Positions 1 to 5,473 of a DNA stretch of 64,000 bases are shown here, in pieces. The position numbers were made by a program, and so were the translations under genes. The notes under the pieces were generated by a model. The model saw nothing but the letters and a program-made list of their open reading frames with translations, did no database searches and was not told the origin of the DNA. The DNA comes from Alphaproteobacteria bacterium (GTDB lineage: Bacteria; Pseudomonadota; Alphaproteobacteria; Rhodobacterales; Rhodobacteraceae), in the NCBI GenBank assembly GCA_030429495.1, contig JAUIFH010000003.1, positions 310,001-374,000 on the forward strand, written 5' to 3'. Numbering within the stretch: position 1 is the first letter of the stretch; every line of letters begins with the position of its first letter.

Positions 1-160
1 TGTGCATAACCAGCGCCTGCCGGCTTTCCCAATAGGGCGGACGCGGCCCCTCGCCCTCGCGCAGCCACCAGCGGTGATAGTCGGGCCAGTACTCGTGAAA
101 GAGCGCGGCCCATGCCGGGCCGGGCTCTTCAATATCAATCGCACGCCACAGATAGTCCAT
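1..160 (-). CDS. C45-family acyltransferase/peptidase-like protein, N-terminal part only
   Basis: The window holds only the first 53 or so codons, starting at the ATG complement at 158-160; the gene runs off the left edge. The start of the protein (MDYLWRAIDIEEPG, then WPDYHRWWLREGE) resembles, from memory, the N-terminus of C45-type autoproteolytic acyltransferases (penicillin acyl-CoA:6-APA acyltransferase family) found in roseobacters. The catalytic Cys of that family would lie beyond the edge, so activity cannot be judged here. It follows the ATP-grasp gene by 38 bp on the same strand and is probably the last or next gene of that operon. The family call is an inference from a short fragment; the gene itself is well supported by its frame and spacing. 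Confidence 0.55.
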   Translation of the reverse strand, partial: MDYLWRAIDIEEPGPAWAALFHEYWPDYHRWWLREGEGPRPPYWESRQALVMH

Positions 161-198
161 TGGTCATGGCGGCCGGACCCGAGGGCCCGACCCCGTCC

Positions 199-1662
199 CT
201 ACATGATCTTGAAGGCCGGATCGGCCAGAGCCGGGCCGGCTTCGACCGACGGCAGGGGGCGTGCGGCGAAGCCCTGCTTGATGCCGTGAATCCACCGCTT
301 CGCCCGCTCGTTAAGCTGGAAGCCGTTCGTCATCGACCGCCCCCGGGTCACCAGAATACCCAGATCGGCGCCTTCGTAACGGTAGTCACCGGGCCGGAGG
401 ATGCGCAGGAAGAAGGCCTCGTTCTCGGATTCGACCGCGCGGCGGTGATAGTCGAAGCGGTCATAGACGACGCGGCCGTCCTCTAGCATCCGGTAGATGC
501 CCGTCTGAGGCGCCTGGGTGACGATATCAACGCTGTCGTCGGTATGCTTGATCACCATCTGGCTCCAGGAGTCGATCATCGACGGGTCGGCCCAGCGGGC
601 GTTCAGCTCCTCCACATCGAGGTGGAAGGCCTTTTTCGAGAACTCGAGAAGATGGAACAGGAACAGGGGTGCGTCGGCATGGGCGAAGGCCGCGTGATTG
701 GTCATCGACGACGCCCCCGTGATGCGTGGGTTCAGTTCGCCCAGCCAGATGTCGCCGGTTTTCTTGTCGATGAGGAAGTCGAGCTCGAAATAGCCGCGAT
801 AGCCTTCCTTGCGGAGCTGTTCACCGAACTTGAAGGTCAGCTCCCGCGCCCTTTCGCGCGTCTTCGGCGGGAAGGCGGTCGCGAATATCTCGTTTCCGCA
901 CCAGCCGCCGCGATAGGGGGTAAGCTCCTTGAAGCCGACAAGCTCGGTCATCAGCGGGCCAACGATGGTGCCCTCCTTCGTCGCGCAGGCCTCGATCGCC
1001 GATCCGCGGCAGTCGATGCGCTTCATGATCTTGATCTCGCCCTCGCCGACGATCTCGTGTTCATGGCGGCGGAAATCAGCCTCGGACTTGATGAAGAAGG
1101 TGGTGTGGCCGCTGTCGCCGAAGGCCGATTGCAGGACGAGGTCATGGCCGAGCCCGGCCTTGTCGCAGATCTTCTTCAGATGATCGTAGCTGTTGACCTC
1201 GGACAGCGTGTTCGGCACCGAGGGCACACCGGCCTTGTTCCCGATCCGCACCGTTTCGATCTTGTTATCCATGTTGGTCCGGAGTTTCGCCTTCGGGAAC
1301 CAGACCTCGGCGCCCAACTCCTTCGACAGGCGCTCCGTCTCCTCGTCGAACATGAGGAAGACGAATTTCGGCTTGCCGCCGCGCCGCTTGATGAGGTCGA
1401 TCACCTCCTTGTGCTGGAGGAGGTAGTTGTTGATTTCCTCGATCGACTGGAATTCGGCATGCGGCTGCTCTGACGGGCAGAACACGTTCGGATGCCGGCC
1501 ATCATAGCAGTCAATATAGCATATGTACTTGAAATTCTTGCACCATTCGTCGATGCCCAGCAGGTTGAAATTGGTCGCCGAGATGAAATAGACCGGGTCT
1601 TCGTTGCGATGGAAGTGCCGGCGGATTTCAGAAATGTTCTTCAGGTCAATCTTTTTGGCCAT
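199..1662 (-). CDS. Free-standing ATP-grasp ligase (biotin carboxylase-like)
   Basis: The product is 487 residues with an ATP-grasp fold from about residue 130 to 340. The Mg-ATP ligand motif is clear: an acidic pair in YFELDF (E293, D295) followed by ELNPRITG (E309, N311). There is no biotin carboxyl-carrier or carboxyltransferase domain here or next door, so it is unlikely to be a true biotin carboxylase, although automatic annotation often uses that name. ATP-grasp enzymes join a carboxylate to an amine, thiol or similar group through an acyl-phosphate. Its neighbours make an amine (decarboxylase upstream, 14-bp gap) and handle amides (amidohydrolase, C45-like protein), so an amide-forming role is the simplest inference. 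The substrate is unknown. Confidence 0.8.
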   Translation of the reverse strand: MAKKIDLKNISEIRRHFHRNEDPVYFISATNFNLLGIDEWCKNFKYICYIDCYDGRHPNVFCPSEQPHAEFQSIEEINNYLLQHKEVIDLIKRRGGKPKFVFLMFDEETERLSKELGAEVWFPKAKLRTNMDNKIETVRIGNKAGVPSVPNTLSEVNSYDHLKKICDKAGLGHDLVLQSAFGDSGHTTFFIKSEADFRRHEHEIVGEGEIKIMKRIDCRGSAIEACATKEGTIVGPLMTELVGFKELTPYRGGWCGNEIFATAFPPKTRERARELTFKFGEQLRKEGYRGYFELDFLIDKKTGDIWLGELNPRITGASSMTNHAAFAHADAPLFLFHLLEFSKKAFHLDVEELNARWADPSMIDSWSQMVIKHTDDSVDIVTQAPQTGIYRMLEDGRVVYDRFDYHRRAVESENEAFFLRILRPGDYRYEGADLGILVTRGRSMTNGFQLNERAKRWIHGIKQGFAARPLPSVEAGPALADPAFKIM

Positions 1663-1676
1663 TTAGTTGTCCCCTG

Positions 1677-4415
1677 TTATTCCGCCGCCTTGGGCATGTT
1701 GTTCTGAACGCGCTTGCTCAGCGCCTCGTCGGTGAAGACGCGAAGGCCGAGATCGGCGCGGTATCCGTGGATTTCATTGACGTCGAGCGCACGCATGAAG
1801 GCAAGGATTTCCTCGCTCACGACCTGTCCGGGCACGAGGATCGGAAAGCCCGGCGGATAGGGAATGATGAAGGAGGCAGAAACCACCTCGCGCCCGCTTT
1901 CCATCGCCTCCCGGATCGACCCGTTGAGGTCGAGATAGTCGCAGTTCGTGTCGTCGTAGCTGAGGAAGAAGGCGGTGCGGATGTCGCCCTCGGTCGTGTC
2001 GCCGCCCGAACGGAACGCATCATGGAAGCGCGAGAAGTCCGGCAGCGGCGGCAGGTCTTCCATCAGCGCCTTGACGCGGTGCTCGAATGCGCGCCGCTCC
2101 ATGTTCGAGGCGTCGTCGAGCCGGTCGTCCAGTTCCTTGGCGATCTCGACCAGAACCTCGATCAGATAGGCGACCGAGGACCGCGTCGTGCCGATATTGG
2201 TCATGAACAACACGGTGTTGCGTGAGGTCTTGTTGATCTGGATGCCGTACTTGTCCATCAGGATCTGGGTCTTGAACGTATCCCCGTCCCAGCCCGTACC
2301 GCCGACAGCCAGCGTCACGCGCGTCGCGTCAAGAACGAATTCGTCCTGCTCCCAGCATTCCCAGATATCGGTCCAGCCCTGTTCGGGATCATAGTAGCTT
2401 TGCACGCCGCTTTCGCGGAACTGCTCGGGGATCATGTCGCCGGCGGCGAGAACCTTGAAGTACTTCTGCAAAAGCGGGTGGGTCGAGATCGCCTTGCGCA
2501 TCGACATCGCCGCCTCGACCTGGCGCTGGACGAATTCGAAGCCCTCAAGCTCCACCTGCCTGCGGCCGACATCGAGCGAGGCGATGATCTGGTAGTTGGG
2601 GCTGGTGGATGTGTGGGTCATGTAGGCTTCGTGGAACGACTGCTCCACCTCGCCCTTGAAGTCCTGATCGTTGACATGGATCATCGACCCCTGCCTGAGC
2701 GAGGTCAGCGTCTTGTGGGTCGACTGCGTCGCATAGGTCCTGACCCGCGCATTCGGTGGCGCGACAAGGCGGGTGTCGAGAAGTGTCTTCTCGTCAGCGT
2801 CCTTCAGCTTTTCCTTTTGCTTTTCCCACGCCTTGACCTGCTCCGGGCTTCTCAGCCGTTCGCGCAGGTTGTTGGCGGCGTTCATCGCGGTGCGTTGACG
2901 ATAGGTCGGGCCGAACCGCGCGAAAGCGAACCACGCCTCGTCCCACAGGAAGATGAGGTCGGGTTTGATGGCGAGGCATTCCTCCATCACCCGCTCGACG
3001 TTGTAGACGACGCCGTCGAAGGTGCAGTTGGTCAGGAGAAGCATCCTGACCCGGTCGAGCTTTCCGGCCGCCTTCAGTGCCAGAAGCTGGTGCTTGATCT
3101 CTTTCAGCGGCACCGCGCCGTACATCGAGTATTCGTTAAGCGGATAGCTGTCGAGATAGACGACCTGCGCGCCCGCAAGCACCATCCCGTAATGGTGCGA
3201 TTTGTGGCAATCCCGGTCTACAAGGACGATATCCCCCGGCCTGACAAGGGCTTGCACGACGATCTTGTTGCAGGTCGAGGTGCCGTTCGTGGCGAAGAAC
3301 GTCTGTTTCGACCCGAAGGCGCGGGCCGCCAGTTCCTGCGCTTTCTTGATCGGCCCGTGCGGCTCCAGCAAACTGTCGAGCCCGCCCGAGGTTGCCGAGG
3401 TCTCGGCGAGGAAGATGTTCGGCCCGTAGAACGCGCCCATGTCCTGAATCCAGTGCGACCGGGAAATCGACTTCCCGCGCGAGATCGGCATCGCGTGGAA
3501 GACTCCCGTCGGCTGTTTGGAATACTCCACCAGCGCGGTGAAGAACGGCGTCTTGTAGCGTGACTGGACGCCCCGCAGGATGTTCAGGTGAAGTTCCTGG
3601 AAGTCTTCCTGATTGTAGAAGACCCGCCGGCAGATACCCAGATCCAGCCCGGCGATTTCCTCGACCGAACGGTCGGTGACAAGATACGCATCCAGTTCCG
3701 GCCGCACCGCAGCGATCAGCCGGCAAAGTTCCGGCCCGTAATTCTCGGGTTTGAGCCCTTCCAGCCATTCCGCGCCACCGGCGCGGTTGAGGTAGCGCTT
3801 CAGGATCGGCAGTTCGACCCCGGATTTCAGGCGCAGGCCGGGGCGTACGACGACCGCCTGAACGTTGTGATTGAAGAGAACGCCGATTAACGCGTCCTCA
3901 AGGCTTGGGACGACGACCGTTTCGTAGATGAACGGATCCTCGAACCGCCGCATCCTCTGGACATTGGTCTTCAGCCAACGCTCCTGATGCTCGTTCAGAT
4001 CATCGACGATCATCACCTCGAAATAGGGCTTGGTCAGCGCGCGCGCCTCGGGCGACAGCATCGCCTCGTCCTCGTGATCCTCGGCATCGGCGCTTTCGCG
4101 ATCGAGCGGGATGTGCCGGCGGCGATAGGCGCCCGTCGTCAGCGCACGGGTGACGCGGTGCACGCCGAAGGCGAGATCGTCGAGATTGGCGTGTTCGTAT
4201 TGCCGACGAAGATGGTCGAAGGCCTGAACGCCCGGAAAAGCCCAGTAGCGTTCGATCAATGCAAGCGAAGCGAACAGGCCTTCGATCTGCTTGCGAAGGG
4301 CGTCTGCCTTCCTGCCCTGCGGGTCGCGGCTGAGCGCGCCGGCGGCCTCGCGCAGCGCGCTCCACCGATCCGCCCGCAGTTGAATGGCGGAATAATAGTC
4401 GTTTACCGATTGCAT
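1677..4415 (-). CDS. Orn/Lys/Arg decarboxylase, PLP-dependent, with N-terminal wing domain
   Basis: This is a 912-residue fold-type I PLP decarboxylase, longer than the E. coli inducible lysine and arginine decarboxylases (about 715-755). The PLP lysine is K568 in the motif STHKTL, and the PLP-ring Asp is D492 in WDEAW; DCHKSHHYG at 402-410 matches the conserved cofactor pocket. Residues 130-260 look like the receiver-like wing domain of this family. The enzyme should remove CO2 from a basic amino acid to give a diamine or agmatine-like amine; which one cannot be read from the sequence. It lies between an amidohydrolase gene (68-bp gap) and an ATP-grasp ligase gene (14-bp gap) on the same strand, indicating one pathway rather than acid stress alone. 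I see no antiporter gene nearby. Confidence 0.9.
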   Translation of the reverse strand: MQSVNDYYSAIQLRADRWSALREAAGALSRDPQGRKADALRKQIEGLFASLALIERYWAFPGVQAFDHLRRQYEHANLDDLAFGVHRVTRALTTGAYRRRHIPLDRESADAEDHEDEAMLSPEARALTKPYFEVMIVDDLNEHQERWLKTNVQRMRRFEDPFIYETVVVPSLEDALIGVLFNHNVQAVVVRPGLRLKSGVELPILKRYLNRAGGAEWLEGLKPENYGPELCRLIAAVRPELDAYLVTDRSVEEIAGLDLGICRRVFYNQEDFQELHLNILRGVQSRYKTPFFTALVEYSKQPTGVFHAMPISRGKSISRSHWIQDMGAFYGPNIFLAETSATSGGLDSLLEPHGPIKKAQELAARAFGSKQTFFATNGTSTCNKIVVQALVRPGDIVLVDRDCHKSHHYGMVLAGAQVVYLDSYPLNEYSMYGAVPLKEIKHQLLALKAAGKLDRVRMLLLTNCTFDGVVYNVERVMEECLAIKPDLIFLWDEAWFAFARFGPTYRQRTAMNAANNLRERLRSPEQVKAWEKQKEKLKDADEKTLLDTRLVAPPNARVRTYATQSTHKTLTSLRQGSMIHVNDQDFKGEVEQSFHEAYMTHTSTSPNYQIIASLDVGRRQVELEGFEFVQRQVEAAMSMRKAISTHPLLQKYFKVLAAGDMIPEQFRESGVQSYYDPEQGWTDIWECWEQDEFVLDATRVTLAVGGTGWDGDTFKTQILMDKYGIQINKTSRNTVLFMTNIGTTRSSVAYLIEVLVEIAKELDDRLDDASNMERRAFEHRVKALMEDLPPLPDFSRFHDAFRSGGDTTEGDIRTAFFLSYDDTNCDYLDLNGSIREAMESGREVVSASFIIPYPPGFPILVPGQVVSEEILAFMRALDVNEIHGYRADLGLRVFTDEALSKRVQNNMPKAAE

Positions 4416-4483
4416 CGCCTCTCCCCGTCGTCGGAGGCCGAGACTTTGCGGATCGTCCGCTGTCGATGCGAATTTGCCGTCGC

Positions 4484-5473
4484 TCAGCCGCTTGTTGTTC
4501 TATCCGCGTGAAGCGGAGATCCGGCGGTTCCCGCTGGCGCCGAATGCCGGTCGCTATTGGGGGTAGAATGCGACAACAGGTCGCTCGCCGCAACTGGAAT
4601 ATCCAGACCCGCGCGCGAACCCTGGCGCGGAATTTCAAGCGGTCCGAGCGTCTTGAGGTAGGAGTCCGCACCGCTGGCGCGATCATAGACGGTGAAATCC
4701 GCGGCCCTGTCGCGGAAGCTCTTGAGGACCTGACCAAGCCCCTTGATACCGGTTTCACGCTGCCGCCGGACAAGGTCCAGATCGACCTCGAGCGGGAACA
4801 TGTCCTCCTGTCCGGCCGACTGGTGCAGCACCGTGGCGGCCGGGTCGATGAACAGCGACCGTCCGACCCCGCCGGCACCAAGACCGTTGACATCGACGAC
4901 GTAGCATTGGAACTGCGCTGCCGTCGCCCGCGCGATAGCCAGTTCCGCGTCACGGTCGGTCGTGCCGGTCAGGACCGGGTGCAGCAGCACTTCCGCCCCC
5001 GCACTGGTCAGCTGGCGGGTCGTCTCGGGGAACCAGATATCGTAGCAGATCGACAGGCCGAAGCGGCCGACATGGGGCACGTCGAACGTGCAGAACTCTG
5101 TCCCCGCCGCGACCTCGTTCTCGTACGGGCGGAACGGAAACATCTTGCGGTAGCGGGTAACGATCTGGCCGTCGGGATCAATGACGGCGCAGGTATTGTA
5201 GATCCGCCCGTCTTCCACTGTCTCGAACATTGAGCCGGGGATCAGCCAGACCTTGTAGCGACGCGCGGCGGCGCGAAACTGGTCAAGCGCCTCGTTCTCG
5301 AAAGGCTGGGCAAAGCGGGTCAGCGGCCCGAACGGCGCCAGTTCGCTGAACAGCACCATCTGCGTCCACGGGAAACGCGCCATCAGGATGTCGAGGCGGT
5401 GCAACATCGCTTCGACATTGGAAGTGAGTGCACTGACATGCATCTGCACGCCGGCAATCGCAAAAGGCGTCAT
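4484..5473 (-). CDS. Carbon-nitrogen hydrolase (nitrilase superfamily amidohydrolase)
   Basis: The 329-residue product carries the full Glu-Lys-Cys triad of the nitrilase superfamily: E44 in FSELAPF, K110 in YRKMFPF and C143 in LSICYDIWFPE. I chose the ATG at 5473 (MTPFAIAGVQ), because the domain begins directly after it; the frame stays open upstream but without family-like sequence. Members hydrolyse or transfer amide, carbamoyl or nitrile groups; N-carbamoylputrescine amidase is one member that works beside amino-acid decarboxylases. It is the first gene of the minus-strand cluster leading into the decarboxylase and ATP-grasp genes, and diverges from the DUF4202 gene, so the 209 bp at 5474-5682 should hold its promoter. 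The C-terminal 50 residues are low in recognisable features. Confidence 0.88.
   Translation of the reverse strand: MTPFAIAGVQMHVSALTSNVEAMLHRLDILMARFPWTQMVLFSELAPFGPLTRFAQPFENEALDQFRAAARRYKVWLIPGSMFETVEDGRIYNTCAVIDPDGQIVTRYRKMFPFRPYENEVAAGTEFCTFDVPHVGRFGLSICYDIWFPETTRQLTSAGAEVLLHPVLTGTTDRDAELAIARATAAQFQCYVVDVNGLGAGGVGRSLFIDPAATVLHQSAGQEDMFPLEVDLDLVRRQRETGIKGLGQVLKSFRDRAADFTVYDRASGADSYLKTLGPLEIPRQGSRAGLDIPVAASDLLSHSTPNSDRHSAPAGTAGSPLHADRTTSG

What the first reader, a model, noticed from the sequence alone, without database searches (positions are those of the whole stretch)
1..5473. Uncharacterised amine/amide cluster: amidohydrolase, Orn/Lys/Arg decarboxylase, ATP-grasp ligase and C45-like acyltransferase
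Four genes on the minus strand combine an amine-forming decarboxylase (K568 PLP site, unusually long at 912 aa), a stand-alone ATP-grasp ligase (E309/N311) without carrier or carboxylase partners, a nitrilase-type amidohydrolase (E44-K110-C143) and the start of a C45-like acyltransferase. Together they could make, ligate and trim an amide-linked polyamine or aminoacyl compound. I know of no named product for this set. The genes continue past the left edge.
Basis: partly seen in the sequence, partly recalled or inferred. Interest (0 to 1): 0.72.

Follow-up and report, generated by a model that had tools for sequence, protein, structure and literature searches.

The report
Conserved four-gene amide and amine operon
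Four neighbouring bacterial genes, for enzymes likely to build, decarboxylate and cut amide-bonded nitrogen compounds, travel together in many bacteria, probably to use an imported nitrogen compound whose identity is still unknown.

Summary
The four genes are real: one minus-strand operon of CN-hydrolase (4484-5473), Rv2531c-type decarboxylase (1677-4415), ATP-grasp protein (199-1662) and a C45/AAT-family Ntn-hydrolase that starts at 160 and runs off the left edge. The unit is conserved: all four in one order in 18 of 19 fetched relatives and 74 of 80 named loci, with other orders or without one member in distant lineages.
The ATP-grasp protein, called 'biotin carboxylase' by NCBIfam, lacks the QVEH motif of biotin carboxylases. 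The decarboxylase keeps the PLP lysine, but two glutamates of ordinary Arg/Lys decarboxylases are Asn and Gln, suggesting a substrate with an uncharged far end.
Neighbours point to catabolism: TAXI-TRAP or Dpp importers, PuuR-like regulators, class III aminotransferases; in some loci the decarboxylase is absent and a 2-ketoarginine route shares the operon, and in two genera the set lies inside an ectoine-degradation cluster. I read it as an uptake-linked ligate/decarboxylate/hydrolyse pathway; substrate unknown, mechanism inferred. Seven searches of the held library found no paper on the set.

The parts
4484..5473 (-). CN-hydrolase (nitrilase superfamily) amidase, first gene of the operon, 329 aa; catalytic E44-K110-C143
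   Evidence: translation; PF00795 E=1.3e-32; triad invariant in 85 of 85 rows
1677..4415 (-). PLP decarboxylase of the long Rv2531c type, 912 aa; PLP lysine K568; N728 and Q864 where ordinary decarboxylases have Glu
   Evidence: PF01276 E=1.9e-77; PDB 9n0o E=2.5e-246; residues
199..1662 (-). Stand-alone ATP-grasp-type enzyme, 487 aa, motif GELNPRITGAS (E309/N311/R313); labelled biotin carboxylase by NCBIfam NF005096
   Evidence: NF005096 766.6 > 684 bits; profile match to biotin-carboxylase domains without the QVEH motif
1..160 (-). First 53 codons of a C45/AAT-family Ntn-hydrolase; the whole gene is G000:C17:309165-310160 (331 aa, nucleophile Cys90)
   Evidence: PF03417 and NF040521 over cut-off

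Best explanation
The four genes form one functional unit, an uptake-linked amine/amide utilisation pathway. SHOWN: the four enzymes occur together across many genomes, their catalytic residues are intact, and in part of the loci they stand beside importers (TAXI-TRAP or Dpp), PuuR-like or Lrp regulators, class III aminotransferases and, in a few lineages, arginine- or ectoine-catabolic genes. INFERRED: the ATP-grasp enzyme is a carboxylate-amine (amide) ligase, not a biotin carboxylase. The decarboxylase removes the alpha-carboxyl of an amino acid whose far end is uncharged (amide- or ureido-capped). The C45 Ntn-hydrolase and the CN-hydrolase then cut the amide bonds. The released amine or omega-amino acid is passed to the neighbouring aminotransferase and aldehyde dehydrogenase towards GABA-type metabolism. 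This is the logic of the Puu pathway (cap, convert, uncap; recalled) built from other enzyme families. The substrate and the order of steps are not known; an arginine-related or other diamino acid is my best guess.
For: Synteny: 18 of 19 fetched regions, 74 of 80 named loci, rearranged but together in more distant genomes. In 61 related genomes every near-identical decarboxylase hit (72% identity or more) lies in a genome with the ATP-grasp gene, except in the draft G007. Pairwise identities of the four proteins correlate at r=0.85-0.93 over the 64 loci with all four complete (relatedness alone can give this). Catalytic residues invariant. QVEH motif absent from the ATP-grasp. N728 in 119 of 119 and Q864 in 118 of 119 decarboxylase rows (one gap), against E/E in 7 of 7 ordinary paralogues. 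Neighbours in 139 cassette loci against 20 control loci taken from 20 of the genomes: fused TRAP permease 46 v 0, class III aminotransferase 46-49 v 0-1, PuuR-like 25 v 0. In Shinella, Roseateles sp. XES5 and Sinorhizobium sp. RAC02 plasmids no decarboxylase gene was found in the fetched stretch, and AruI, ureohydrolase, aldehyde dehydrogenase, D-amino-acid dehydrogenase, racemase and RidA share the operon. Two genera carry the set inside an ectoine cluster (DoeA and EhuR over cut-off, measured in one of the two), followed by an aldehyde dehydrogenase and an aminotransferase.
Against: No biochemistry. The ATP-grasp has no close relative of known reaction in the PDB search, and its model was poor (pLDDT 51.7). 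No probed importer or aminotransferase lies beside the focal operon; 36 of 139 mapped loci show only the four genes. The CN-hydrolase is missing near the others in several distant lineages and in the rhizobial plasmids, so it is not always part. Contexts differ (arginine route, ectoine route, TRAP, Dpp), so no single substrate fits them all. Ureohydrolases beside the set (9 of 139) suggest an intact, charged guanidino group, which sits badly with an uncharged far end. In one search most probes were chosen because they had already been seen beside the set, loci are related, and several genomes occur twice.
Confidence: 0.4

Rival explanations
1. Arginine catabolism: the decarboxylase is an arginine decarboxylase making agmatine, and the other three enzymes process agmatine-derived or GABA-derived amides.
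For: In three plasmid loci without the decarboxylase, AruI, ureohydrolase, D-amino-acid dehydrogenase and racemase are in the operon. A ureohydrolase precedes the four genes in five loci of one family. Outside the Rv2531c type, the best PDB sequence match is a chain labelled biodegradative arginine decarboxylase (6q6i).
Against: Both glutamates kept by 7 of 7 ordinary paralogues are Asn and Gln in the cassette decarboxylases. Two genera place the set in an ectoine cluster. An ordinary agmatine route needs no ligase (recalled).
Confidence: 0.22
2. Biosynthesis: the genes make an amide-linked polyamine or aminoacyl compound, for example a solute or signal.
For: A ligase plus a decarboxylase is a common biosynthetic pairing (recalled); 36 of 139 mapped loci, the focal one among them, show no importer or catabolic partner among the probes used.
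Against: Two amide hydrolases in one unit; importers, PuuR-like regulators and aminotransferases are the commonest neighbours among the probes; known catabolic genes surround it in some lineages.
Confidence: 0.2
3. Salvage of imported N-acyl amino acids: C45 and the CN-hydrolase act first and free an amino acid, which is then decarboxylated (or racemised and oxidised where the decarboxylase is absent); the ATP-grasp enzyme re-conjugates the acid released.
For: Dpp-type peptide importers and a signature-family amidase follow the genes in rhizobial plasmids; both the decarboxylase-containing and the D-amino-acid operons could start from a free amino acid.
Against: Gives the ATP-grasp enzyme, the one with the highest mean identity of the four, only a side role; does not explain the N728/Q864 change.
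Confidence: 0.13
4. The ATP-grasp protein is a true biotin-type carboxylase and the set fixes CO2 on an amine or urea-like compound.
For: NCBIfam equivalog name 'biotin carboxylase'; the best PDB matches are biotin-carboxylase domains.
Against: QVEH is replaced by T/S/C-G-A/C/I-S/T in 111 of 111 rows. No biotin carrier or carboxyltransferase is listed in the seven annotated plasmid stretches, whose gene tables are incomplete.
Confidence: 0.05

Closest known systems
M. tuberculosis Rv2531c (PDB 9n0n, 9n0o, 9n0p), 'probable amino acid decarboxylase'
   Same: Full-length homologue of the decarboxylase (E=2.5e-246; 1098 bits with the profile), same PLP lysine motif and the same Asn in QINKTS and Gln in PGQ.
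   Different: Activity not clarified (PMC12910592, passages seen). Whether the other three genes lie beside it was not tested here.
Puu putrescine pathway (PuuA ligase, PuuB, PuuC, PuuD)
   Same: Proposed logic of amide capping and later hydrolysis, and a PuuR-like regulator near the set in 25 of 139 loci.
   Different: ATP-grasp-type instead of a glutamine-synthetase-type ligase, C45 and CN-hydrolase instead of PuuD, a decarboxylase in the set; the one regulator scanned is below the PuuR cut-off (128 v 211 bits). The Puu enzyme classes are recalled.
D-arginine / 2-ketoarginine catabolic route (DadA, AruI, aldehyde dehydrogenase, guanidinobutyrase)
   Same: Shares an operon with the ATP-grasp and C45 genes in Shinella, Roseateles sp. 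XES5 and Sinorhizobium sp. RAC02 plasmids.
   Different: Does not include these enzymes in its described form (recalled).
Ectoine degradation cluster (DoeA, DoeB, DoeC, DoeD, EhuR)
   Same: Surrounds the four genes in two genera of one family.
   Different: Only DoeA and EhuR were scored over cut-off, in one of the two; DoeB, DoeC and DoeD are my labels from position and family. In the other loci with the set the DoeA probe found nothing (2 of 139).

Membership tests
Biotin carboxylase (NCBIfam NF005096 name) | Score over the curated cut-off of NF005096 | tested here: met
   766.6 against 684 bits; over cut-off in 21 of 120 genomes of the family and 0 of 14 control genomes
Biotin carboxylase (NCBIfam NF005096 name) | Q-V-E-H catalytic motif after the E-x-N-x-R motif | tested here: not met
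   Alignment to pyruvate carboxylase shows NPRITGAS against NPRIQVEH; T/S/C-G-A/C/I-S/T in 111 of 111 rows. The role of the motif is recalled
Biotin carboxylase (NCBIfam NF005096 name) | Biotin carrier and carboxyltransferase partners nearby | tested here: inconclusive
   None listed in seven annotated plasmid stretches (incomplete gene tables) and none recognised by eye among ORF starts; no search with carrier models was made
ATP-grasp superfamily | E-x-N metal ligands and ATP-grasp fold | tested here: inconclusive
   E309 and N311 in 111 of 111 rows; profile matches to biotin-carboxylase domains and CPSase; the 50 listed Foldseek matches are ATP-grasp proteins, but on a model of pLDDT 51.7 with TM 0.24-0.36; no Pfam match at all at E 0.01
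Orn/Lys/Arg decarboxylase, AAT fold (PF01276) | Profile score and PLP lysine | tested here: met
   261 bits, cut-off 27; K568 in 119 of 119 rows
Orn/Lys/Arg decarboxylase acting on free basic amino acids | Glu at the LdcI E526 position and Glu in the PPGxPxxxPGE motif | tested here: not met
   N in 119 of 119 and Q in 118 of 119 rows (one gap), against E/E in 7 of 7 ordinary paralogues and E/E in 6q6i and 6y3x. E526 as substrate contact is a docking prediction and an earlier proposal quoted in PMC5607190; a role for the second Glu is my inference
Rv2531c-type decarboxylase | Full-length homology including the long N-terminal part | tested here: met
   Residues 14-901 aligned, E=2.5e-246
C45 / AAT (PF03417) Ntn-hydrolase | Profile scores and Cys nucleophile | tested here: met
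   105 bits v 23.2, 166 v 85, C90 in 105 of 105 rows
C45 / AAT (PF03417) Ntn-hydrolase | Self-cleavage before the Cys | not testable with these tools
   Needs the purified protein
Nitrilase superfamily (PF00795) | Glu-Lys-Cys triad | tested here: met
   E44, K110, C143 in 85 of 85 rows
N-carbamoylputrescine amidase AguB (TIGR03381) | Score over curated cut-off | tested here: not met
   71.6 against 410.25 bits
Puu pathway | PuuR regulator over curated cut-off | tested here: not met
   128 against 211 bits for the one representative scanned, L107

The most novel reading that the evidence does not exclude
An independently evolved 'cap, decarboxylate, uncap' pathway: an ATP-grasp ligase caps the side-chain amine of a diamino acid as an amide, the Rv2531c-type decarboxylase acts only on the capped amino acid, and C45 plus CN-hydrolase release the product. 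It would give a reaction class to an orphan decarboxylase family that includes an M. tuberculosis enzyme of solved structure and unclarified activity.
Probability: 0.2. Interest if true: 0.75.

Novelty: new variant of a known kind. Interest (0 to 1): 0.52.

Why it matters
The set is widespread but patchy in the Roseobacter group (21 of 120 family genomes) and occurs on rhizobial plasmids and in other Pseudomonadota, yet its substrate is unknown and its ATP-grasp enzyme bears the name 'biotin carboxylase', apparently wrongly. Its decarboxylase belongs to the family of Rv2531c, whose activity is unclarified (PMC12910592). The conserved neighbours give concrete hints of what this decarboxylase family might act on, and they make the question testable in harmless marine bacteria.

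Tried and rejected
Viral contigs: 30 pattern matches, none a relative. ATP-grasp structure from an alignment of the window protein and 23 of the 80 search for related loci sequences gave pLDDT 51.7, so its Foldseek matches count only as weak support for the ATP-grasp fold. VIA-align was not available. Rfam: no RNA family over the operon. Rejected: an HDAC-like gene as a partner (1 of 139 v 1 of 20). Antisense ORFs appeared as false neighbours (for example components 4, 15 and 19, my judgement by eye) and were not used as probes; three of the seven 'ordinary paralogues' were antisense ORFs picked by length, and the comparison was redone. Seven searches for the gene combination returned no paper; they need several terms in one text, so a paper that names the genes otherwise would be missed. 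Searches were on single enzymes.

Full report
OBSERVATION. The window is G000:C17:310001-374000. Reading leftwards past the edge completes the fourth gene. The operon on the minus strand is CN-hydrolase (4484-5473), decarboxylase (1677-4415), ATP-grasp (199-1662) and C45 (window 160 to G000:C17:309165), with gaps of 68, 14 and 38 bp. A convergent ORF follows C45.

IT IS A UNIT. Of 61 related genomes, 20 hold a strong ATP-grasp match (E under 1e-100, my count). In 18 of the 19 regions I fetched, all four genes stand in the same order and direction (in L051 the ATP-grasp gene appears in two matches); the nineteenth (L052) is a second, divergent set without the decarboxylase in a genome that also has the full set (one short contig, L007, was not fetched). 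Six lack one gene, five of these at contig ends, so only L112 (Roseovarius dicentrarchi, no CN-hydrolase) is a real exception. In more distant genomes the order changes: CN-hydrolase/ATP-grasp/C45/decarboxylase in L088 and L089, two divergent pairs in L090. The CN-hydrolase is not found near the others in L091 and L092, L189 and L190 or the rhizobial plasmids L173-L175, L182 and L183. L084 has the ATP-grasp gene without the other three. Pairwise identities of the four proteins correlate at 0.85 to 0.93 over 64 loci, as expected of genes inherited together, though shared ancestry alone gives the same. The set is patchy: the ATP-grasp family is over cut-off in 21 of 120 genomes (119 genera) of the family, and found in 11 of 385 of the class and 9 of 299 of the phylum, the own genome counted in each.

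ENZYMES. The decarboxylase is a full-length relative of M. tuberculosis Rv2531c (PDB 9n0o). A 2026 review calls that enzyme a putative amino acid decarboxylase and says its cryo-EM study did not clarify the activity (PMC12910592; passages seen). Against ordinary AAT-fold decarboxylases, the Glu of the VVEK motif and the Glu of PGE are replaced by Asn728 (119 of 119 rows) and Gln864 (118 of 119, one gap), while 7 of 7 ordinary paralogues from related genomes keep both. The first position is LdcI Glu526 by my count from the printed alignment, a predicted substrate contact (docking and a quoted earlier proposal in PMC5607190; passages seen). I infer that the usual charged side-chain end is not bound in the usual way. 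The ATP-grasp protein matches biotin-carboxylase domains best but has TGAS-like residues in place of QVEH in 111 of 111 rows, so the NCBIfam name is unlikely to describe its reaction. C45 and CN-hydrolase have intact nucleophiles. The CN-hydrolase is far below the AguB cut-off.

CONTEXT. I mapped 26 neighbour probes in 139 cassette loci and in 20 control loci taken from 20 of the genomes. Fused TRAP permease 46 v 0, TAXI receptor 39 v 0, universal stress protein 33 v 0, class III aminotransferase 46-49 v 0-1, PuuR-like regulator 25 v 0, FMN glutamate-synthase-like 24 v 0, Dpp binding protein 12-13 v 1, Dpp permease 12 v 2. Most probes were picked because they had been seen beside the set, the loci are related to each other and some genomes came in twice, so these numbers are descriptive, not a test. 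Where TRAP genes are present they stand upstream in the same direction as the set; 36 of 139 loci, the focal one among them, show only the four genes. In rhizobial plasmids the decarboxylase, ATP-grasp and C45 genes are followed by a Dpp-type importer and an amidase, once next to nifHDK.

TWO TELLING VARIANTS. In Shinella, Roseateles sp. XES5 and Sinorhizobium sp. RAC02 plasmids no decarboxylase gene was found in the 21-25 kb fetched. The ATP-grasp and C45 genes lie in an operon with AruI (737 v 500 bits), ureohydrolase, aldehyde dehydrogenase, D-amino-acid dehydrogenase, racemase and RidA, and the CN-hydrolase with an Lrp regulator is divergent (bit scores measured on Shinella only). The Roseateles record is marked UNVERIFIED_ORG and the three operons look alike, so they may be one lineage. 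Cupriavidus necator N-1 also shows no decarboxylase in the fetched stretch and has an aldehyde dehydrogenase and a weak D-amino-acid dehydrogenase match (158 v 383 bits) nearby; Cupriavidus oxalaticus has all four. In two genera of one unnamed family of the phylum the four genes lie between ectoine genes (DoeA 654 v 613 and EhuR 596 v 480 bits in one genome; the other by similarity) and a following aldehyde dehydrogenase (below the SSADH cut-off) and aminotransferase. Both variants fit removal of an alpha-carboxyl followed by aldehyde oxidation, and both hosts are breakdown operons.

READING. I think the set is an uptake-linked pathway that makes and then breaks amide bonds around a decarboxylation. 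What is shown is conservation, intact catalytic residues and context; what is inferred is the ligase activity, the order of steps and the substrate. The guanidino-handling neighbours (ureohydrolase in 9 of 139 loci) fit arginine, but the changed pocket does not fit a free basic amino acid; I could not reconcile the two.

LITERATURE. Seven searches for gene combinations in the held open-access library returned no paper. The cryo-EM paper on Rv2531c is not held; I know it only through the review. PMC8503589 (passages) says that a considerable number of B. subtilis SpeA homologues are unlikely to be arginine, ornithine or lysine decarboxylases. PMC7806604 (passages) gave the domain layout of lysine decarboxylases.

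Noticed in passing
L175:1142-4969 and L182:620-4454: A Nif11-like leader peptide gene with radical SAM epimerase and C-methyltransferase (annotated RiPP genes) lies upstream of the decarboxylase/ATP-grasp/C45 genes on two Rhizobium plasmids.
   Followed up: no
L052:7933-11993: A second, divergent set (ATP-grasp 44%, C45 45%, CN-hydrolase 55% identity) without the decarboxylase, in a genome that also has the full set, beside ORFs that look like a DctP-type TRAP importer (by eye).
   Followed up: partly
L181:9141-13682 and plasmid hits H25-H32: Broken copies of the set on some Rhizobium and Sinorhizobium plasmids (split decarboxylase, short C45 next to transposases, ATP-grasp in pieces), so the set seems to be decaying in some symbionts.
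   Followed up: no
L084:7419-8951: An ATP-grasp homologue (45% identity) with none of the other three genes within about 7 kb.
   Followed up: no
   Followed up: no
NCBIfam NF005096, window 199-1662: The family is named 'biotin carboxylase' although the 111 rows examined lack the QVEH motif; the annotation is probably misleading.
   Followed up: partly
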